Positions 6,272 through 40,638 of a stretch of 64,000 nucleotides of DNA are shown here, one piece after another. This DNA is from Rufibacter immobilis (GTDB lineage Bacteria; Bacteroidota; Bacteroidia; Cytophagales; Hymenobacteraceae). Location: the NCBI RefSeq assembly GCF_003721565.1, contig NZ_RJJE01000001.1, positions 496,001 through 560,000 on the forward strand, given 5' to 3'. Within the stretch, counting starts at the first letter, position 1, and the number at the start of each line of letters is the position of its first letter. Under the pieces are notes generated by a model, which was given only the letters and a program-made list of their open reading frames with translations, was not told where the DNA came from and ran no database searches. The position numbers and the translations under genes are program-made.

Positions 6272-6826
6272 TAATGTACCTAGAGGTTAACTTTCTCTAC
6301 CCGCTCTTACCCGATTCTGGAGGGGTCTTGGCACTTGACATGGATGGTGCCTAGCCCTTAATCCCAGCACCGGAAGCACAGGCCGTTGGTTTAAAAGCCA
6401 GCGCTTACCGCCAAAGCCTCTAAGGGATGGAAGGATAACGCGGTAAAGGCAATCACTACATAACGGGCGGCCAATACTGCCGTAAAAGAACCAGAGTAGC
6501 GTATTCATTCTAAATGGGAAATATTTGCTTATGCGCACCACGCGCAGACTGAACCAAATGCTTTTAGATTGCCAGAAGGGTGATGCCAGCATGAGGATAA
6601 ACTGTTCCTTACTTGGCTCCTTCTGCACCGCCGCTGTTGGTTAAACTTTACGCTACAGCTATATTCTTTAGGTATAAGCAGGAGACCAGCAAAACCCCTT
6701 TAAGGCTTCTACAGTAGTATAAATGCCAATATTATTTAATATCTTACCAGATAAGTACTACGCTCCGGTCTTAGTGCATGAACTCAATTACAGTATTAAA
6801 TTTTCTATTCTTTTGCCATACCACTC
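6272..6826. other. Gene-poor stretch before the sensor kinase
   Basis: No convincing coding sequence. A 113-codon open frame on the minus strand (6287-6628) has no recognisable domain, an arginine- and tryptophan-rich composition and no neighbour support. A neighbouring frame around 6400-6490 reads TALSFHPLEALAVS, slightly reminiscent of sterol-desaturase-type proteins, but it is too short to call. Upstream of 6827 there is an AT-rich leader with TTCTTTTG (near-match to TAnnTTTG) about 15 nt before the ATG. Confidence 0.4.
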
Positions 6827-9763
6827 ATGTACATCCAGAGAATATTATCCGGGGTTTTCCTTGTCGCTTTCCTTAGTTTGGTATTCTTTACTACACTTGC
6901 GTACTTAAACCTAAACGACACCTATACCCTTTACCGCCAGGACCAAATTGCGCTTGACATTCTGAGAGCCATAGAGCCCTTGGAAAACAACATATTGAAT
7001 ATTAACAACGGAGCCATCGCCTATGCCACCCAGGGCCACACCCAGGCGCTGGAGCAGCACGGGAAAGGACTTGCCAATTACCCAAGAAGCCTACGGGTGT
7101 TACAGAGTATTGACGCCACGGGCCTGGGTAAATCAGAAGACATGCAGCGGTTAATGCAACACGCAGACTCTGTCATTTCTCTCTCTTCGCGTCTGGTGGC
7201 CCAGGTCAAGGCCAGCCCCTCAGGCGCATCCTTCACGGTACTTGAGGAGAAACTACACCAGCATCTCTATCTTTTCAGAGCTGTGGTAAAGGCCATAGAG
7301 CACCAACAACAGGCCAAGCAGCTTTTAGCCGATGAAAACACGCAGAGCAAGCTCAACAACATGCTGCACACCTTCATTGTCTTTACGGCCTTCATGTTCC
7401 TATTTTTCATGGCCACCTATTGGCTTATCCACAAAACCCTCCGGAGCAGGCAGCAGGCGGCGGAGCTCCTGAGAGAAAAGGAACAACTTTTCTCCATTCT
7501 CTTCTACAAGAGCCCTATTATGCTGGCGCTCACAGAACTTTCTACCGGTAAAATCATTGACACCAATGACAATTCTTTGGCCTTCCTGGGCTATTCGCGC
7601 GAACAGGTCATTGGCCGCACCGCCCATGAGCTGAAGCTATATCCTAATCCGCAGGACCGGGAAAATGTGATCCAGATGGTGCTCAACAACCAAAAGGTAC
7701 GCAATCTGGAAATGCGGCTCCGCACCCAAAGCGGCGAAATAAGGGATGTCATGTACAACATTGAGCGCATGCACCTCAACAACCTAGACTGCATTCTGCT
7801 GGCCTTTGAAGACATCACAGACCGTAAGCGGGCAGAGAAAAAGCTAAAGGACAGCGAACTCCTGTTCTCTACCATTTTTTACAAAAGCCCCATCATCAAA
7901 TCCATCTCAGACGCCAACACGGGTGCCTACTTAGATGTGAATGATCGGTTTTGTCAGTTTTTTGGTTACCCTAAAGAAGAAATCCTGGGCAAATCCAGCA
8001 CAGAGCTCCAACTCTGGAAAAATGAGCATGACCGTACCGCCTTTGCCCAGAAGCTTAGAAATGAGCAGCGGGTGAAGTCTCTGGAACTGGAGGTAAAAAC
8101 CAAACAGGGCGCTATTCACCATATCTCTACCCACGCAGAGATCCTTCGCCTAGACGGGAAAGAATGTATTGTTTCTGCGGCGGTAGACATCACAGAAAAG
8201 AAACAGGCCGATGAACTTATCCGGAACCTAAACATCTCTTTGGAGAAAAGCGTGGCCGAGCGTATCAAGGAAGTCTCTGACTACAAATATGCCCTAGACC
8301 AATCTTCCATTGTGGAGATCACAGATAAAACCGGCGCCTTTATCTACGTCAATGACAACTTCTGCAACATCTCCGGTTACCGCCAGGAAGAACTGTTAGG
8401 CAAAAACCACCGCATCACCAAGTCCGGCTACCACTCCAAAGAATTCTTCCAAGATATGTGGGAGACCATCTCACGGGGCAACATCTGGAAAGGCGAGATC
8501 AAAGACCTGACCAAAGACGGTGTCTACTACTGGACTGAGACCACCATTGTCCCCATCCTGGATGAGCAGGGCAGCCCGCACCAGTATCTGGCCATTAGGT
8601 GGGACATCACTTCTAAAAAAGCCAGTGAAGAAGCATTACTGAGGGCCGTAGATGAACTAAGGATGAGCTCAGAGAGATTGAAGGAGGCACAGGCCCTGTC
8701 ACATGTGGGTAGTTGGGAATTTTCTTTGGAGCCCCAGGAGGCCATTTGGTCTGATGAGATCTACCGCATCTTGGGCACCTCACCTACTGAGACACCTACC
8801 AAGCTGGAATCATTCATGACGTTCGTGCACCCCGAGGATGTGGAGCACTCTCGCAAGATGCTGACGGCCCAAACCTACAAAGCAGACACCTCTTACCAGT
8901 TCAACTGCCGCATGGTGCTCAAAAACGGCAGCGTAAAATACCTATACAATGAATTTAAGGCGATAGTAGAACCTGACGGGAAACCCGTAAAACTAATAGG
9001 CATAACGCATGATGTCACCAAAGAATGGTTGGCCCAGCTGGAGAACGAGCGCATTACCTCAGATCTGCTACAGCGCAACAAAGACCTGGAGCAGTTTGCG
9101 TACATTGTCTCCCACAACCTCAGGGCTCCGGTGGCCAACATCATGGGCCTCTCCAACCTGATCAGGATGCTCCCCCCAGAGAATTCTGCCTTTAAAAAGT
9201 CTATGGACGGACTCCAAATCTCCGTGAACAAGCTGGACACCGTGATCAAGGATTTGAACAACGTGTTGCAGATACGCCGGCAGATCAATGAGATGAAAGA
9301 GGAAATAGACCTCCAACAGCTAGTGGATGATATCAAGTCTATGGTCGCGAATCTGATTGACAAAGAAAATGTCCTGATCTACACAGATTTCTCCCGCCTG
9401 GGGAAAATCTATTCCATCAAGAGCTACCTGCACAGCATTTTCTCCAACCTCATTTCCAACAGCATCAAATACCGCCAACCAGACCAAAGGCCTATTATTG
9501 AAATCATCGCCGACAAAATAGATAGTAAGATCTACTTCTATTTCAGGGACAACGGTTTGGGCATTGACTTAAAAGCCCATGAACACAAGCTTTTTGGGCT
9601 GTACAAGCGGTTTCATTTCCATACAGACGGCAAAGGCATGGGCCTTTTTATGGTAAAGACGCAGGTAGAGACCCTGGGTGGCAAAATCTATGTGCAAAGT
9701 GAAGTGAACAAAGGCACCGAGTTCATCCTGGAGTTTGAGGAACAGCACATGCGCCAGTGGTAA
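6827..9763 (+). CDS. Membrane sensor histidine kinase with CHASE3-like and four PAS domains
   Basis: A 978-residue sensor kinase. Residues 7-28 and about 183-203 are membrane segments flanking an extracytoplasmic helical region of the CHASE3 type. Four PAS domains follow at roughly 215-340, 340-465, 490-610 and 625-750; each contains a typical GY/E-E core and several end in a PAC motif (DITDRKRAE, DITEKKQAD, DITSKKASE). The HisKA helix carries the phospho-acceptor His763 in IVSHNLRAPVANI. The ATPase domain shows the N-box (FSNLISNSIKYR), DNGLGI and GKGMGLFMVKTQ. No response regulator adjoins it, so it is an orphan kinase. Cytoplasmic PAS copies may bind ligands or sense redox state; the signal is unknown. 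No receiver domain is fused. A shared terminator with the tRNA region follows. Confidence 0.93.
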   Translation: MYIQRILSGVFLVAFLSLVFFTTLAYLNLNDTYTLYRQDQIALDILRAIEPLENNILNINNGAIAYATQGHTQALEQHGKGLANYPRSLRVLQSIDATGLGKSEDMQRLMQHADSVISLSSRLVAQVKASPSGASFTVLEEKLHQHLYLFRAVVKAIEHQQQAKQLLADENTQSKLNNMLHTFIVFTAFMFLFFMATYWLIHKTLRSRQQAAELLREKEQLFSILFYKSPIMLALTELSTGKIIDTNDNSLAFLGYSREQVIGRTAHELKLYPNPQDRENVIQMVLNNQKVRNLEMRLRTQSGEIRDVMYNIERMHLNNLDCILLAFEDITDRKRAEKKLKDSELLFSTIFYKSPIIKSISDANTGAYLDVNDRFCQFFGYPKEEILGKSSTELQLWKNEHDRTAFAQKLRNEQRVKSLELEVKTKQGAIHHISTHAEILRLDGKECIVSAAVDITEKKQADELIRNLNISLEKSVAERIKEVSDYKYALDQSSIVEITDKTGAFIYVNDNFCNISGYRQEELLGKNHRITKSGYHSKEFFQDMWETISRGNIWKGEIKDLTKDGVYYWTETTIVPILDEQGSPHQYLAIRWDITSKKASEEALLRAVDELRMSSERLKEAQALSHVGSWEFSLEPQEAIWSDEIYRILGTSPTETPTKLESFMTFVHPEDVEHSRKMLTAQTYKADTSYQFNCRMVLKNGSVKYLYNEFKAIVEPDGKPVKLIGITHDVTKEWLAQLENERITSDLLQRNKDLEQFAYIVSHNLRAPVANIMGLSNLIRMLPPENSAFKKSMDGLQISVNKLDTVIKDLNNVLQIRRQINEMKEEIDLQQLVDDIKSMVANLIDKENVLIYTDFSRLGKIYSIKSYLHSIFSNLISNSIKYRQPDQRPIIEIIADKIDSKIYFYFRDNGLGIDLKAHEHKLFGLYKRFHFHTDGKGMGLFMVKTQVETLGGKIYVQSEVNKGTEFILEFEEQHMRQW

Positions 9764-9805
9764 TCTGGGCAAAAGGCTGAACAAGCCAGGCGAGCATAAA
9801 TAGAA

Positions 9806-9838
9806 AAAGCCGCTCATACAGTGCGTATGAGCGGCTTT
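9806..9838. terminator. Strong bidirectional hairpin terminator between the kinase gene and tRNA-Leu
   Basis: A 14-bp stem (AAAGCCGCTCATAC with its complement) and loop AGTGC, with A and T runs at both ends. It can end the kinase transcript from the left and the minus-strand tRNA transcript from the right. Confidence 0.85.
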
Positions 9839-9839
9839 G

Positions 9840-9923
9840 TACCAGGAGCGGGAATCGAACCCGCACGACCTAATGGTCACAAGATTTTAAGTCTTGCGTG
9901 TCTACCAGTTCCACCATCCCGGC
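9840..9923 (-). tRNA. tRNA-Leu (anticodon TAA)
   Basis: On the minus strand the sequence begins GCCGGGATGG and contains the class II long variable arm. The T-arm reads GCGGGTTCGATTCCCGC. The anticodon stem-loop CAAGACTTAAAATCTTG gives anticodon TAA. The acceptor stem closes with TCCTGGT plus discriminator A. CCA is not encoded. Confidence 0.95.
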
Positions 9924-9961
9924 AACCTCACCTCCCGAAGGAAATGAATTAGGCAGATAAA

Positions 9962-9992
9962 CAAAAGACGTTACCGAGGCAACGTCTTTTGT
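9962..9992. terminator. Hairpin between the two tRNA genes
   Basis: CAAAAGACGTT and its complement AACGTCTTTTG surround a short loop. The run of T/A on each side suits termination of the tRNA-Gly transcript on the minus strand. Confidence 0.7.
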
Positions 9993-9996
9993 TTTG

Positions 9997-10069
9997 AGCG
10001 AAAGACGGGGTTCGAACCCGCGACCTCGACCTTGGCAAGGTCGCGCTCTACCAACTGAGCTACTTTCGC
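9997..10069 (-). tRNA. tRNA-Gly (anticodon GCC)
   Basis: On the minus strand: acceptor GCGAAAG/CTTTCGC, D-arm AGCTCAGTTGGTAGAGC, anticodon stem GACCT with loop TGCCA, and T-arm GCGGGTTCGAACCCCGT. The anticodon is GCC. The gene is 73 nt long and CCA is not encoded. Confidence 0.95.
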
Positions 10070-10219
10070 GTTTTAACTAACTCGCTGTTTGAATTAGTGA
10101 TACAAAGGTATACACAAAAATCTTAATGTCAAGCGCAGCCCTCAAAAAAAATTCACCAACTACAGCTTCTCCCTGAAAATCAGGAAGAAAAATTTCAAAT
10201 AATTTTGTGGCCCTATAGC

Positions 10220-10255
10220 GTTTAGAGGCTGTTTTTGGAAAAAGAGCCCCTAAAC
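10220..10255. repeat. 36-nt palindromic repeat
   Basis: GTTTAGAGGCTGTTTTT / AAAAAGAGCCCCTAAAC around GG. Two positions in the arms are unpaired or wobble; length and centre are exactly those of the family. Confidence 0.85.
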
Positions 10256-10556
10256 GGATACTCTTGGCACCACAGAGAAAGCGCCTCTCTTCAAAACATT
10301 GCCTAAAACAGTGATTTACCTCCGCTTTTTTATTAGGTATTAGACATGCTCCACCCTCTTTCTTGTCTGGCATGGCTTCCCGGCGGTAGCTTTCACAGCT
10401 TATTCTTCCACCTACAAGAGGTAGGAGCAAGCCTAGCTGCATAGCCTCCTCCCATTAGAAGCAGTCTTGCCCTAACAAAGTCTGCCCCATCACCAAGTTT
10501 ACAGATAAATTGAGCGGGCAGCCTTCATCCATATTCTGGTGGGGCTCTATTTGCAG

Positions 10557-10614
10557 CGAAGCCACCCGTTTAGGAGCCGTTTTTGGAAAAACAGCCCCTA
10601 AACGGGTGGCTTCG
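10557..10614. repeat. Extended palindromic repeat forming a long hairpin after mutS
   Basis: The 36-nt core (10568-10603) is flanked by CGAAGCCACCC on the left and GGGTGGCTTCG on the right, giving a stem of about 28 bp with one interior mismatch. It begins 35 nt beyond the mutS stop codon and is well placed to act as its terminator. The outer arms are specific to this copy, so the core has either inserted into, or become the tip of, a pre-existing hairpin. Confidence 0.85.
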
Positions 10615-10648
10615 GCTTACCTAAGAATTCAGGTTCCTGAGTGATAGA

Positions 10649-13285
10649 TTAAGCTTTTTGCCGTTTGCCGTCTACCAGCATCTTCAGTTCGTTGAGTTTG
10701 AGCAGCGCCTCTACCGGCGTAATGGTGTTGATGTCCAGTTTCTCAAACAATTCCTTAATGCGCACCAACTGCGGATCGTTGAGTTCAAACATGCTGAGCT
10801 GGTACGGCTGCTTGGGCAGAGTTTTGAGGGTTTCCTGCGGATCTTGGTGCGGGTGGCTGATTTTCTCCTGCTCCAGGTGGTGCATGATTTCATTGGCCCT
10901 AAGCACAATACTGTTGGGCATACCCGCCATCTGCGCCACCTGTATCCCGAAGCTGTGGGCACTGCCACCTTCCACCAGTTTGCGCATGAACAAGATTCTG
11001 CCGTTGCTTTCCTTCACGCTCACGTTAAAGTTGCGCACCCGCGGGAAATCCTCGGCCAATTGGTTCAGTTCATGGTAATGCGTCGCGAACAAGGTTTTAG
11101 CCCGGCCTTTAGGCGCGTTATGCAGGTGCTCCACAATGGCCCAGGCAATGGAAATGCCGTCATAGGTACTGGTGCCCCGGCCAATCTCATCCATGAGCAC
11201 CAGGCTGCGGTCAGAGAGGTTGTTCAGGATGCTGGCCGTTTCGGTCATCTCCACCATGAACGTACTCTCGCCGCGGCTCAGGTTGTCTGAAGCGCCCACC
11301 CGGGTGAAGATTTTGTCAATCACGCCCACCTGCGCCGCCTGCGCGGGCACAAAGCAGCCAATCTGCGCCATGAGCACAATTAAAGCCGTCTGCCGCAACA
11401 GGGCACTTTTACCGGCCATGTTTGGCCCCGTGATGATAATGATCTGCTGGTCGTCGTTGTCTAGCCTGATGTCATTGGGCACATAGCGCTCCCCCACCGG
11501 CAGTTGCTTTTCAATAACCGGATGGCGGCCTTGCGTGATATTGAGCACGGTGCTCTCGTCTACCTCGGGCTTCACGTAATTGTTCTGGGTGGCCAGCTGC
11601 GCGAAATTGGCCAGACAGTCCAGCATACCCAGGGCTTTGGCGTTCTGCTGAATCTGGGGCACAAACTCGGCGGCACTCAAGACCAGTTCATTGAAGATGC
11701 GCTGCTCAATCACGAACAGCCGGTCCTCGGCGTGCAGGATCTTTTCCTCGTAGGTTTTAAGCTCCTCGGTGATGTAGCGCTCGGCGTTCACCAGCGTCTG
11801 CTTTCTTATCCAGGAGCTGGGCACTTTGTCTTTGTGGGCGTGCGTCACCTCCAGGTAATAACCGAACACTTTGTTGTAGGCGATTTTCAGGCTGCTGATG
11901 CCCGTGTTCTGCACCTCGCGCTGCTGAATCTGCAACAGGTAATCTTTGCCCGAAAACGCAATGGCCCGCAGCTCGTCCAGTTCGGCATCAATACCGTTCT
12001 GCACCATGTTTCCCTGGTTGGTGAGTACCGGCGCATCGGGCTTCAGGACTTTCTGGATCTCATCTCTAATGCTCTCGCAGGGCAGCAGTTGATCGGCCAG
12101 CTTCTGCAGGGCGGGCACGCCGCTCACCGCCAATAGTTCTTTAATGGGTAGGGTAGCCTCCAGCGCCCGTGCCAACTGCAACAACTCTCTGGGGTTCACC
12201 CGGCGCACCGCCACCTTAGAGATGAGGCGCTCCAGGTCACTGATCTGTTTCAGGTAGTGGTGGATGTCATGCAACAGTTCTGGACGGGCCTGCAAAGCCT
12301 CCACGGTATCTAACCGCCGCCTGATCTGCGCTGCATCCTTTAACGGCAGCACCAGCCACTTGCGCAGCAACCGGCCGCCCATGGGCGTAATGGTGTTATC
12401 CAGCACGTCAATCAACGGCACACCCTCGGGGTGCTGCGGATAGATCAACTCCAGGTTGCGCACCGTGAAGCGGTCCAGCCACACGTACTTATCTTCCTCC
12501 AGGCGGCCCAGCGCCGTGATGTGGCGCAGGTCGTGGTGCTGGGTCTCGGCTAGATAGTGTAGGATGGCCCCGGCCGCCGTGATACCCTCCGTGAGCGCCT
12601 CCACCCCAAAGCCTTTGAGGGTTTTGGTATTGAACTGCTTGGTGAGCGCCTCCAGCGCGAAGTCATAGCTGTACACCCACTCATCCAGCGCATAATGGCA
12701 GAAATCATTGCCAAAAGTCTGGAAGAATGTTTCTTTTTTGCCTTTGCAGAAGAGCACCTCGGCGGGGCTGAAGTTCTGGAGCAACTTGGCGGCGTAGCCT
12801 GCATCACCCTGAGCCAGCAGGAATTCACCGGTAGAGGCATCCAGTAAGGCAATACCCACCAGTGGCCCTTTCCCGAAGTGAAGCGAGGCCAGGTAATTGT
12901 TCCGCTTCTGCTCCAACACCTGATCGTTGAAAGACACCCCCGGAGTTACCAGCTCCGTTACCCCCCGCTTCACAATGCCTTTCACGGTTTTGGGGTCTTC
13001 CAGCTGGTCGCAGATGGCTACGCGTTCACCGGCCCGCACCAGTTTGGGCAGATAGGTATCCAGCGAATGGTGCGGGAAACCGGCCAATGCTGTCTCTGCC
13101 GCCGAGCCGTTCCCCCGTTTGGTCAGCAGAATGCCCAGTATCTTGCTGGCTTTGATGGCATCTTCGCCAAAAGTCTCATAAAAGTCCCCTACCCTGAAGA
13201 GCAACAGCGCGCCCGGGTGTTTCGCCTTGATGGCATTGTATTGTTTCATCAGCGGCGTAGCGCTGAACTCTGCAGATTTGGCCAA
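10649..13285 (-). CDS. mutS: DNA mismatch repair protein MutS
   Basis: Recognises base mismatches and small loops and starts methyl-independent repair with MutL. The mismatch-reading Phe-X-Glu is in RVGDFYETF near residues 33-38. The ATPase domain has Walker A GPNMAGKS, Walker [14 protein letters not shown] and the ATHYHEL motif. I chose the TTG at 13283-13285, giving 878 residues beginning (M)[15 protein letters not shown], because [11 protein letters not shown] is a conserved N-terminal block and starting at the internal ATG (13247-13249) would remove it. A frame open up to an ATG at 13457-13459 runs through the 36-nt palindrome and is unlikely to be translated. Divergent from the RNA methyltransferase gene. 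Confidence 0.95.
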
Positions 13286-38520: not shown

Positions 38521-39132
38521 ATGGCATTTGAACTTCCGCAACTTCCGTATGCGTACGATGCGCTAGAGCCGCACATTGACCGCCAGACTATGGAGATCCA
38601 CCATACCAAGCACCACCAGGCGTACCTCACCAACCTGAACAACGCCATTGCCGGCACTGAGAAGGAAGGCCAGTCTATTGAGGAAATCCTGCGTGACGCG
38701 GCCAAGACCCCGGCCATCAGAAACAACGGCGGCGGGTACTACAACCACAACCTGTTCTGGACCATCCTGAGCCCCAACGGCGGCGGTAACCCAACCGGCC
38801 CGGTGGCAGAGGCCATTGACAAGGCGTTCGGTTCTTATGAGGCGTTCAAAGAGGAGTTCGCGAAGGCAGCTACCACCCGCTTCGGGTCTGGCTGGGCCTG
38901 GCTGTGCGCCGTAGAAGGCGGAGCCGTACAAATCTGCTCTACCCAAAACCAAGACAACCCTTTAATGGAAGGCGTTGACACTTGCGGCGGCGTTCCAATC
39001 CTGGGCCTTGACGTGTGGGAGCACGCCTACTACCTCAAATACCAGAACCGCAGACCAGAGTACATCTCTGCGTTCTTCAACGTGATCAACTGGGATGAAG
39101 TGAACCGCCGCTTCGCGGAAGCCAACGGCTAA
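38521..39132 (+). CDS. sod: Superoxide dismutase (Fe/Mn family)
   Basis: Dismutes superoxide to oxygen and hydrogen peroxide in the cytoplasm. 203 residues without signal peptide. Metal ligands are His27 ([12 protein letters not shown]), the histidine of YYNHNLFW, and Asp and His in [24 protein letters not shown] is the usual core strand. The segment [11 protein letters not shown] has Tyr where Mn enzymes usually carry His (GGGHxNH), so metal preference (Fe, Mn or both) cannot be decided by eye. Monocistronic with its own -7 box and terminator. Confidence 0.95.
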
Positions 39133-39252: not shown

Positions 39253-39630
39253 TTACGCGTTACATCCTGCGCAGTACCCAGACACCCAGCAATTGACCTG
39301 CGCCACCTGGTAGCCATTGGGCAATGAGAGGCTCACCTGCTCCGGCAAACATTCTACCCGCTGGCAGCCCAGGCACCGGAAGTGGAAATGGTCATGGGTA
39401 TGGTGGTGGTGCTCACAGGTCCGGCACAGCGCAAAATAGAACTTGCCCTCATCAGAGACAATGCGGTGCGCCATACCGTCTTCGCAGAAGCGGTTCAGGA
39501 CCCGGTAAATGGTCACCCGGTCTACTTCGCCTTTCAGTTTCTGCTCTATCTGGTCCTGGCTCAGCGCCGAGTTGGTGGCGTTCAACATAGCCAGTATGGC
39601 TTGCTGGGAAGGTGTGTTTCGTCTTTTCAT
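39253..39630 (-). CDS. Fur-family metalloregulator, Zur-like
   Basis: 125 residues from the ATG at 39628-39630; an upstream in-frame extension would run through the adjoining regulatory palindrome and a divergent gene. The winged-helix domain (1-75) contains QAILAMLNATNSALSQDQIEQ and DRVTIYRVLNRFCEDG, the Fur DNA-recognition helix. The metal part is rich in ligands: CEHHHHTHDHFHFRCLGCQRV and a second CxxC in SGYCAGC. Two CxxC pairs for structural zinc and the His-rich stretch fit Zur or a Fur/PerR relative. The protein lacks the N-terminal helix of longer Fur proteins. It is divergent from the flavoprotein reductase, and the palindrome between them is a likely binding site. Confidence 0.88.
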   Translation of the reverse strand: MKRRNTPSQQAILAMLNATNSALSQDQIEQKLKGEVDRVTIYRVLNRFCEDGMAHRIVSDEGKFYFALCRTCEHHHHTHDHFHFRCLGCQRVECLPEQVSLSLPNGYQVAQVNCWVSGYCAGCNA

Positions 39631-39639
39631 GGCACTTAA

Positions 39640-39654
39640 TGCAACATTGTTGCA
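39640..39654. promoter_or_regulatory. Likely Fur/Zur-family operator: perfect 7-1-7 palindrome
   Basis: TGCAACATTGTTGCA is a perfect 7-1-7 inverted repeat, the spacing typical of Fur-family sites. It begins 9 nt before the repressor ATG (minus strand) and its last bases overlap the TTG box of the divergent reductase promoter. Binding would block that promoter and lie in the repressor leader, giving autoregulation. Confidence 0.65.
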
Positions 39655-39679
39655 ATAACAGAAATTTCCGCTACATTTG
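39650..39679 (+). promoter_or_regulatory. Promoter of the flavoprotein reductase gene
   Basis: TTG at 39650-39652, 19 nt, then TACATTTG at 39672-39679. It is a full match to the TTG-N19-TAnnTTTG pattern, with the ATG 50 nt downstream. Its upstream box is inside the palindrome at 39640-39654. Confidence 0.75.
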
Positions 39680-39729: not shown

Positions 39730-40638
39730 ATGCAAGAGAGAACCACATTTGACGTGATCATCATTGGCGGAAGCTACGCCGGGCTTTCGGCGGCCATGTG
39801 CCTGGGCAGGGCTTTGCGCCAGGTACTTGTCTTGGATATGGGGCAACCGTGCAACCGCCAGACCCCGCACTCGCATAACTTCCTCACCCAGGACGGGGAA
39901 ACTCCGGCCGCCATTGCCCAGAAAGCCAGGGCACAAGTCCAAGCTTACTCTAACGTCTCGTTCCGGAACGATGCCGCGCTTCAGGTAACCGGACAGAACC
40001 GTGATTTCACGGTCACCACCGCCTCCGGCAGTATTCTGAAAGCCAGCAAGCTGATTTTCGCCACCGGTATCCGGGACCTCATGCCTCCCATCAAAGGCTT
40101 CTCTGAGTGCTGGGGTATTTCTGTGCTGCATTGCCCGTACTGCCACGGCTATGAGGTAAGCGGTAAGGAATTTGGGATTCTGGCCAACGGCGAAATGGCC
40201 TTTGAACTGGTGAAGCTGCTGCAAAACTGGTCCAAGAAACTCACGCTGCTCACCAAAGGCCCGCACACCCTCACCCCGGAACAGGAACGGCAATTACAGC
40301 ACTACCAGGTGGCAGTAGAGGAAAAAGAAGTGGCGGAATTCGTCCATGACCAAGGCCAACTGCAGCAGGTCACGTTCCAGGACGGCTCTACCCGCAAATT
40401 GACCACAGTATTTGCGCGGCTCCCCTTTGAGCAGCATTGCCCTCTCCCGCAAGCATTGGGCTGCGCCTTAGCCGCAAGCGGACATTTGCAGGTAGATGCT
40501 TTCCAGCGAACCACCGTGCCGGGCATATACGCCGCCGGCGATGCCATTTCAAAGTTAAGAGGGGTTTCAGCGGCCGTGGCCCAGGGCACCGCTGCGGGCG
40601 CTTTCGTGAACAAAGACCTCATTGACGAACGTTTTTAG
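39730..40638 (+). CDS. NAD(P)/FAD-dependent oxidoreductase, thioredoxin-reductase-like
   Basis: 302 residues. FAD-binding DVIIIGGSYAGLSAAMCLG (residues 8-26), a central NAD(P)-binding part, and the closing IYAAGDAISKLRGVSAAVAQG that binds the flavin ribityl. A CxxC pair (Cys135, Cys138) lies in LHCPYCHGYEVSG, the position of the redox disulfide of thioredoxin reductase, but the NADPH motif (normally GxGxxA) is poor: GILANGEMAFEL. This places it in the group of uncharacterised TrxR-like proteins often linked to stress or metal genes. It is divergent from the Fur/Zur-like repressor and its promoter overlaps the palindromic operator. The stop codon TAG lies inside a palindromic repeat, so the last residues (DERF) are encoded by the repeat arm. 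Confidence 0.88.
   Translation: MQERTTFDVIIIGGSYAGLSAAMCLGRALRQVLVLDMGQPCNRQTPHSHNFLTQDGETPAAIAQKARAQVQAYSNVSFRNDAALQVTGQNRDFTVTTASGSILKASKLIFATGIRDLMPPIKGFSECWGISVLHCPYCHGYEVSGKEFGILANGEMAFELVKLLQNWSKKLTLLTKGPHTLTPEQERQLQHYQVAVEEKEVAEFVHDQGQLQQVTFQDGSTRKLTTVFARLPFEQHCPLPQALGCALAASGHLQVDAFQRTTVPGIYAAGDAISKLRGVSAAVAQGTAAGAFVNKDLIDERF

What the first reader, a model, noticed from the sequence alone, without database searches (positions are those of the whole stretch)
39640..39679. Zur/Fur-type operator overlapping the reductase promoter
A perfect 7-1-7 palindrome (TGCAACATTGTTGCA) lies between the divergent Fur-family gene and the flavoprotein reductase. Its last bases form the TTG box of a full-consensus promoter (TTG-N19-TACATTTG). 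The neighbouring regulator has a His-rich segment and two CxxC pairs, typical of zinc-binding members. This predicts metal- or redox-dependent repression of a TrxR-like protein with an unusual CPYC pair.
Basis: partly seen in the sequence, partly recalled or inferred. Interest (0 to 1): 0.55.

Follow-up and report, generated by a model that had tools for sequence, protein, structure and literature searches.

The report
Zinc-type switch for dithiol oxidase
The palindrome looks like a conserved zinc-regulator binding site over the promoter of a flavoenzyme that resembles toxin-disarming dithiol oxidases; the same site stands before this enzyme and before zinc-uptake genes in many related bacteria, which suggests that zinc starvation switches on a thiol-oxidising defence.

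Summary
In detail: a perfect 7-1-7 palindrome at 39640-39654, whose inner TTG is the -33 box of TTG-N19-TACATTTG. Symmetry alone is not beyond chance (7 such palindromes in the window), and the genome has no second copy. Conservation carries the case. A plain operator pattern stands upstream of 74 of 80 orthologous regulator genes (reversed control 0). The 17-mer core occurs in 60 of 390 genomes of the order (reversed control 0), beside ZigA-type GTPases, MerC, TonB receptors, a ZIP transporter, AztD-like proteins and, most often, this reductase. 88 of 140 reductase orthologs carry the box (1% threshold; 0 of 7 paralogs), 76 of them with no regulator within 700 bp upstream. So it is a Zur-type zinc box. 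The 'reductase' is not thioredoxin reductase: its nearest structures include the dithiol oxidases DepH, HlmI and GliT, CPYC is invariant (98 of 98), and the NADPH arginine pair is gone. Best reading: a zinc-loaded Zur-like repressor shuts off itself and a DepH-type dithiol oxidase; zinc loss derepresses both. This parallels P. aeruginosa DnoP, a dithiol oxidase induced by zinc starvation through an unknown regulator (PMC11317636). Binding, zinc sensing, activity and substrate are inferred, untested.

The parts
39640..39654 (.). 7-1-7 palindrome, core of the Zur-type operator
   Evidence: conserved
39636..39658 (.). extended 23-mer operator TTAATGCAACATTGTTGCAATAA (consensus in relatives TTATTGCAACANTGTTGCAATAA); 5 nt from the regulator ATG, 71 nt from the reductase ATG
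   Evidence: weight matrix and distance; sites within 250 bp in 77 of 80 regulator loci by the matrix trained on them, 74 of 80 by a plain pattern, reversed pattern 0 of 80
39650..39652 (+). TTG, -33 box of the reductase promoter, inside the right arm of the operator
   Evidence: spacer of exactly 19 to TAnnTTTG in 31 of 88 operator-bearing reductase orthologs
39672..39679 (+). TACATTTG, -7 box of the reductase promoter (Bacteroidota type; consensus recalled)
39253..39630 (-). Fur-family, Zur-like repressor, 125 aa, with H55, C69, C72, H81, H83, C86, C89, E93, C94, C120, C123 invariant in 19 aligned orthologs
   Evidence: Pfam FUR 37.6 bits, cut-off 23.1
39730..40638 (+). DepH/HlmI/GliT-type FAD dithiol oxidase candidate, 302 aa, active-site pair C135-P-Y-C138

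Best explanation
The palindrome is the operator of a zinc-responsive (Zur-like) Fur-family repressor. With zinc bound, the repressor sits on the 23-mer, covers the -33 box of the flavoenzyme promoter and the start region of its own gene, and represses both. When cell zinc falls, through scarcity or because a dithiol compound chelates it, the repressor lets go and the enzyme is made. The enzyme is a DepH/HlmI/GliT-type FAD dithiol oxidase that closes small-molecule dithiols into disulfides, using oxygen and not NADPH, and so disarms zinc-chelating dithiol toxins of the gliotoxin or holomycin kind. Shown by sequence: operator, promoter geometry, conservation, association with zinc genes, enzyme family and motifs. 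Inferred: that this regulator binds this site, that zinc is the signal, the oxidase activity, and the defence role (the least certain step).
For: Operator pattern TGCRA-N5-TYGCA within 250 bp upstream of the regulator in 74 of 80 loci from named genomes, reversed pattern 0 of 80. The 17-mer TTGCAACANTGTTGCAA is in 60 of 390 genomes of the order, reversed control 0 in the rows shown. All 71 sites were examined: 54 have within 400 bp, transcribed away from the site, a gene clustering with the reductase (14 sites), a ZigA-type COG0523 GTPase (11), TonB receptor (9), MerC (9), a lipoprotein family (3 more sites), a His-rich lipoprotein family (4), an AztD-like protein (3) or a ZIP transporter (1); 17 have none of these (one or two members per family put to Pfam or NCBIfam). 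88 of 140 full-length reductase orthologs have the box within 400 bp above a 1% shuffle threshold, 64 above the best of 2960 shuffles; 0 of 7 paralogs. With a matrix trained only on the 26 regulator loci that hold no reductase: 76 of 140 over the threshold, 33 over the best shuffle, 0 of 7. Other upstream regions: 5 of 662. 76 of the 88 have no regulator within 700 bp upstream. A regulator relative (E up to 1e-10) is in 59 of 60 genomes with the 17-mer against 243 of 330 without. C69 aligns with FurB C76 and H55 with D62. Enzyme: DepH E 8e-52, HlmI 1e-50, GliT 2e-35; Z 33.7, 32.0, 31.7 against 28.8 for E. coli TrxR; CPYC 98 of 98, NADPH arginine pair 0 of 98. Parallel: DnoP.
Against: In this genome the box occurs once; MerC was not found and the best CobW-family match is 36 bits, so here the link to zinc is indirect. 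NCBIfam's Zur equivalog cut-off is missed by far (25 of 167 bits), and a Fur structure ties with Zur in the fold comparison. The regulator lacks the His that aligns with Fur H125 (numbering recalled) and carries extra invariant cysteines C72 and C94, so another metal or thiol sensing is possible. The regulators in genomes with unlinked boxes are mostly a 34-43% identical clade, so the trans evidence may concern that clade. 52 of 140 reductase orthologs score below the threshold, though some of these still carry a clear palindrome. 4 of the 5 background hits score as high as true sites. All counts are inflated by relatedness. No expression, binding or enzyme data exist here.
Confidence: 0.72

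Rival explanations
1. Zinc-controlled thiol housekeeping: the operator is a Zur box, but the enzyme serves the cell's own thiols or a self-made dithiol metal ligand during zinc shortage, not defence against foreign toxins.
For: The enzyme is the most frequent gene beside the box, together with uptake genes; in three Arenibacter loci it shares one divergent run of genes with MerC and a TonB receptor (L100, L110, L137).
Against: The characterised near relatives DepH, HlmI and GliT, and DnoP of the DepH group, act on natural-product dithiols (PMC5721475 passages, PMC11317636 sections); deleting dnoP did not change sensitivity to the chelator TPEN.
Confidence: 0.35
2. The neighbouring regulator is a peroxide-, thiol- or other-metal sensor with a single local target, and the similarity of its box to zinc-gene boxes reflects shared ancestry of the DNA-reading helix only.
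For: One box in the genome; extra invariant Cys C72 and C94; superoxide dismutase gene next door, also in Rufibacter-group loci.
Against: Regulators of the same clade stand divergent to MerC / small Cys-His protein / TonB receptor genes in Flavobacteriia; no superoxide dismutase match within the loci outside the Rufibacter group.
Confidence: 0.15
3. The palindrome is a chance symmetry without function.
For: Seven perfect 7-1-7 palindromes in 64 kb; no second exact copy in the genome.
Against: Conserved position and sequence in 74 of 80 orthologous loci and upstream of 88 of 140 reductases.
Confidence: 0.01

Closest known systems
Zur regulon and Zur box (E. coli, Mycobacterium, Streptomyces and others)
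   Same: Fur-family repressor with Cys4 structural site and a Zur-type cysteine; inverted-repeat operator over promoters; genes beside the box include COG0523 ZigA-type GTPases, a ZIP transporter, TonB receptors and AztD-like proteins.
   Different: Own box sequence TTATTGCAACANTGTTGCAATAA; MerC and a dithiol oxidase as leading neighbours; in the window's genome only one box. Haas et al. (PMC2770081, passages only; its supplementary tables not seen) list candidate Zur sites in Firmicutes, proteobacteria and cyanobacteria; its main text has no hit for Bacteroid or Flavobacter.
P. aeruginosa DnoP (PA4170), zinc-starvation-induced dithiol oxidase (PMC11317636; abstract, passages and sections 9-11 read)
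   Same: DepH-group dithiol oxidase made under zinc starvation.
   Different: In P. [quoted passage not shown] here a Zur-type box overlaps the promoter and is conserved through an order. No direct comparison with the DnoP sequence was run.
A. fumigatus GliT with GtmA (gliotoxin oxidase and bis-thiomethyltransferase; PMC10500201 passages)
   Same: Fold and CxxC chemistry; zinc-linked expression; 7 of 80 loci here have the enzyme and a SAM methyltransferase in one divergent run of genes.
   Different: Sequence-distant (27% identity in the structural alignment); the methyltransferase is not shown to be GtmA-like.
NADPH thioredoxin reductase TrxB
   Same: Overall fold, FAD, one CxxC.
   Different: Scores 90 of 343 bits against the curated TrxB cut-off; the genome has a separate TrxB over the cut-off with CAVC, GAGDTA and an RR pair.

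Membership tests
Fur superfamily | FUR domain over the curated cut-off | tested here: met
   PF01475 37.6 bits, cut-off 23.1
Zur (zinc uptake regulator) | two CxxC pairs of the structural zinc site | tested here: met
   C86/C89 and C120/C123 invariant in 24 of 24 aligned sequences
Zur (zinc uptake regulator) | Zur-type cysteine in the regulatory site (E. [quoted passage not shown]
   C69 aligns with FurB C76 and is invariant in 24 of 24; passage
Zur (zinc uptake regulator) | box upstream of zinc-acquisition genes | tested here: inconclusive
   met in relatives; not seen in the window's own genome, where the only convincing box is this one
Zur (zinc uptake regulator) | zinc-dependent DNA binding | not testable with these tools
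   needs protein
NCBIfam E. coli-type Zur equivalog (PRK11639) | score over the curated cut-off | tested here: not met
   25.1 of 167 bits; hence described as Zur-like by box and residues, not filed in that equivalog
DepH/HlmI/GliT/DnoP dithiol oxidases | redox CxxC in a TrxR-like fold nearest to these enzymes | tested here: met
   CPYC 98 of 98; among the best PDB sequence hits; Z 33.7, 32.0, 31.7; two uncharacterised proteins, 3fbs and 4fk1, rank between them
DepH/HlmI/GliT/DnoP dithiol oxidases | oxygen-dependent oxidation of small-molecule dithiols | not testable with these tools
   enzyme assay needed; loss of the NADPH arginine pair is in line with it
NADPH thioredoxin reductase (TIGR01292) | score over the curated cut-off | tested here: not met
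   90.1 of 343.45 bits
NADPH thioredoxin reductase (TIGR01292) | NADPH-binding arginine pair | tested here: not met
   the column pair is RR in the genome's own TrxB; the second Arg column has no R in 98 of 98

The most novel reading that the evidence does not exclude
Across Bacteroidota, zinc starvation sensed by a Zur-like repressor directly controls a DepH-type dithiol oxidase as a standing defence against zinc-chelating dithiol toxins, in some lineages with a methyltransferase beside it, so that bacteria and fungi have arrived at the same pairing of signal and antidote; in the window's lineage this antidote is the only remaining target of its own zinc repressor.
Probability: 0.38. Interest if true: 0.75.

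Novelty: new variant of a known kind. Interest (0 to 1): 0.6.

Why it matters
It gives a testable zinc-regulator box for a phylum whose Zur regulon I did not see described in the listings of eight searches of the paper library or in passages of two Flavobacteriales papers (PMC9976891; PMC11960050). It also ties a dithiol oxidase directly to such a box, a step that the authors of the P. aeruginosa DnoP study say is not yet elucidated (PMC11317636). If right, zinc stress is a general cue by which environmental bacteria meet disulfide toxins of competitors.

Tried and rejected
Own-genome regulon: exact 15-mer, two-mismatch 15-mer and a degenerate 19-mer found no convincing second box (the 19-mer with one mismatch gave 2 sites against 5 for its reversed control). 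The two-mismatch hit L007 is the centre of a perfect inverted repeat with 23-base arms, near a gene that looks like an integrase by eye. Sigma-70 promoter scan: nothing, as expected for Bacteroidota.

Peroxide or iron sensing: no NCBIfam Fur/PerR/Irr/Zur equivalog cut-off is passed; not excluded. Superoxide dismutase as a partner: matches in the loci are limited to the Rufibacter group, so not counted as part of the unit. Fold comparison cannot separate Zur from Fur: 4mtd Z 12.6, 3mwm 12.3, Fur 5nbc 12.2.

Methyltransferase as a GtmA counterpart: one weak PDB hit, 2p8j at 4e-7, and generic family hits; left open.

Counts: from the 141 reductase upstream regions one duplicate (L159, same gene as L243) was dropped; one search prints 89 and 65, the numbers after dropping are 88 and 64. 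Two partial matches (G295 and the second G365 copy) were not in the test. The first weight matrix was trained on the upstream regions of L060-L139; 44 of these regions also face a reductase and a few come from the window's own order, so repeats the test with 26 reductase-free loci (76 of 140). The figure 77 of 80 uses the matrix trained on the same loci; the plain pattern gives 74 of 80. Start positions are match starts, not always start codons. Gene calls in scripts are mechanical frames. Relatedness inflates all counts; the Fisher and binomial values printed ignore it and are not used as probabilities. In one search the control TrxB was picked wrongly (longest frame); one search repeats it with the right one.

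Full report
Observation. The palindrome TGCAACATTGTTGCA is at 39640-39654, between a Fur-family gene on the minus strand (39253-39630) and a flavoprotein gene on the plus strand (39730-40638). Its inner TTG (39650-39652), 19 bases and TACATTTG (39672-39679) fit the Bacteroidota promoter form (consensus recalled). The window has seven perfect 7-1-7 palindromes, so symmetry alone proves nothing, and the genome has no second exact copy; of the 11 sites with two mismatches 10 lie inside mechanically called frames.

Where it comes from. Genomes that share the window's genus include named Rufibacter and Sabulibacter records (contig lengths agree, for example G042:C3 and NZ_VKKY01000003.1). Regulator orthologs of 50% identity or more are in 19 of 120 genomes of the family, the window's own included. 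In the genus sample the pair is present together in G000, G006 and G027 and absent together in G012, G017, G022, G032 and G037 (G037 has only a 35% regulator relative).

Conservation at the regulator. A scan of named genomes found 320 relatives and kept the best 80. A symmetric weight matrix refined on their upstream regions gives the consensus TTATTGCAACAATGTTGCAATAA. By that matrix 77 of 80 loci have a site within 250 bp of the regulator start and 42 have two or more; the misses are L081, L106 and L127. The plain pattern TGCRA-N5-TYGCA gives 74 of 80, its reverse 0 of 80. This fits autoregulation. The nearest divergent gene is the reductase in 44 of 80 loci, MerC in 8, a 91-aa Cys protein (cluster 14) in 5, a small Cys/His protein (cluster 3) in 4, others three times or fewer (families of representatives). 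Loci L100, L110 and L137 (Arenibacter) carry TonB receptor, small protein, MerC and reductase in one divergent run.

Conservation away from the regulator. The 17-mer TTGCAACANTGTTGCAA is in 60 of 390 genomes of the order, 71 sites, with no match for the reversed pattern in the rows shown. The genes beside all 71 sites were examined. Fifty-four sites have a gene of these clusters: the reductase (14, one of them, L182, split), COG0523 GTPase (11; ZigA model 548 bits, cut-off 600), TonB receptor (9), MerC (9), a lipoprotein family also found beside MerC (3 more sites), a His-rich lipoprotein (4), an AztD-like protein (3; 106 bits, cut-off 400) and a ZIP transporter (1). One or two members of each were put to Pfam or NCBIfam; the two lipoprotein families have no Pfam hit. 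Seventeen sites have none of these. Two sites with the reductase also face the regulator (L144, L204). This is the gene content of a zinc-uptake regulon.

The reductase test. One search lists 149 matches in 136 of 390 genomes: 140 full-length orthologs (45% identity or more), 7 paralogs (37-39%) and 2 partial matches that were left out. Upstream regions of all 140 and all 7 were scored. Eighty-eight of 140 pass the 1% threshold from dinucleotide shuffles, 64 pass the highest of 2960 shuffles, 0 of 7 paralogs pass. With a matrix trained only on the 26 regulator loci without a reductase, 76 of 140 pass the 1% threshold, 33 the highest of 2940 shuffles, and 0 of 7 paralogs. Of 662 other upstream regions in the named loci 5 pass, 4 of them with high scores, three in one locus (L072). 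The plain pattern is in 74 of 140 against 0 of 140 for its reverse. Twelve of the 88 have a regulator within 700 bp upstream; 76 do not.

The regulator. It is a Fur-family protein by Pfam with three CxxC pairs. C69 and H55 align with C76 and D62 of M. tuberculosis FurB; that these are ligands of the regulatory site in FurB is recalled. E. coli Zur uses His77, Cys88, His96 and Glu111 there, and Cys88 is the most conserved of them among Zur proteins (PMC4219657, passages). The AlphaFold model (pLDDT 85) is nearest to E. coli Zur, Z 12.6, but Fur 5nbc at 12.2 is a tie. No curated equivalog cut-off is reached. A relative of the regulator (E up to 1e-10) is present in 59 of the 60 genomes with the 17-mer and in 243 of the other 330, mostly a 34-43% identical clade, which may be the main Zur of these genomes. 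The window's genome has three Fur-family genes: a canonical Fur, this one, and one beside an RND efflux adaptor.

The enzyme. Its best PDB relatives are DepH (8e-52), HlmI (4ntd, 1e-50), an uncharacterised Agrobacterium enzyme (3fbs), a B. anthracis protein (4fk1) and GliT (2e-35). The AlphaFold model (pLDDT 88) gives DepH Z 33.7, HlmI 32.0, GliT 31.7 and E. coli thioredoxin reductase 28.8. CPYC is kept in 98 of 98 distinct relatives and HCPYCHGYE in 95. The arginine pair that the genome's own TrxB has in its NADPH motif is absent in 98 of 98. It fails the TrxB cut-off, and the genome has another gene that passes it.

Mechanism and context. GliT uses oxygen to close the disulfide of gliotoxin; DepH and HlmI act likewise on romidepsin and holomycin (PMC5721475, passages). 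Dithiol gliotoxin and reduced holomycin chelate zinc (PMC10500201, passages). In P. aeruginosa the DepH-group oxidase DnoP is induced by gliotoxin and by TPEN, protects against several such toxins, and its signalling path is unknown (PMC11317636, abstract, passages and sections 9-11). The Bacteroidota arrangement supplies, by sequence, a direct zinc-box link. Seven of 80 loci also hold a class I methyltransferase in the same divergent run, reminiscent of GtmA, but its family match is generic.

What is not shown. Binding, zinc as the signal, oxidase activity and the natural substrate. In this genome only one convincing box was found; MerC was not found and the best CobW-family match is 36 bits, against 187-192 for the ZigA-type proteins beside boxes.

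Verdict. A Zur box is a known kind of thing; a box shared across this phylum in which a dithiol oxidase is a leading neighbour was not seen in the listings of the papers searched (only papers under open licences are held).

Noticed in passing
G000 contig C13:5981-6331 (locus L014, 1417-1833, minus strand): A second Zur-like Fur paralog (33% identical to the window's regulator) directly downstream of a CzcB/CusB-type RND adaptor gene on a 76-kb contig, perhaps a metal-efflux regulator.
   Followed up: partly
L007, around 1480-1535 (G000:C10:1445132): A perfect inverted repeat with 23-base arms near a gene that looks like an integrase by eye; it caused a two-mismatch hit to the palindrome.
   Followed up: no
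L084, L088, L093, L095, L097, L109, L110, L119, L122, L137: A class I SAM methyltransferase, in 8 of these 10 loci with a 91-aa Cys-containing protein without Pfam hit, on the strand divergent from the regulator; 7 of the 10 loci also hold the dithiol oxidase.
   Followed up: partly
L182, site at 2001 (G365:C4): The reductase copy behind the box is split into an 89-aa frame and a separate 220-aa frame, while the same genome has a full-length copy elsewhere.
   Followed up: no
L112, L116, L117, L125, L131, L135, about 6371-10775: In Winogradskyella the genes convergent to the regulator are a di-haem peroxidase (MauG type), a lipoprotein, a small Cys protein and an outer-membrane receptor (the last three by eye), perhaps a copper or other metal set.
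   Followed up: no
L072, 6510-10831: Three further upstream regions in this Chitinophagales locus score as operator sites, so it may hold a larger zinc cluster.
   Followed up: no
window 38521-39132: Fe/Mn superoxide dismutase gene convergent to the regulator, matched near it in Rufibacter-group loci only.
   Followed up: partly
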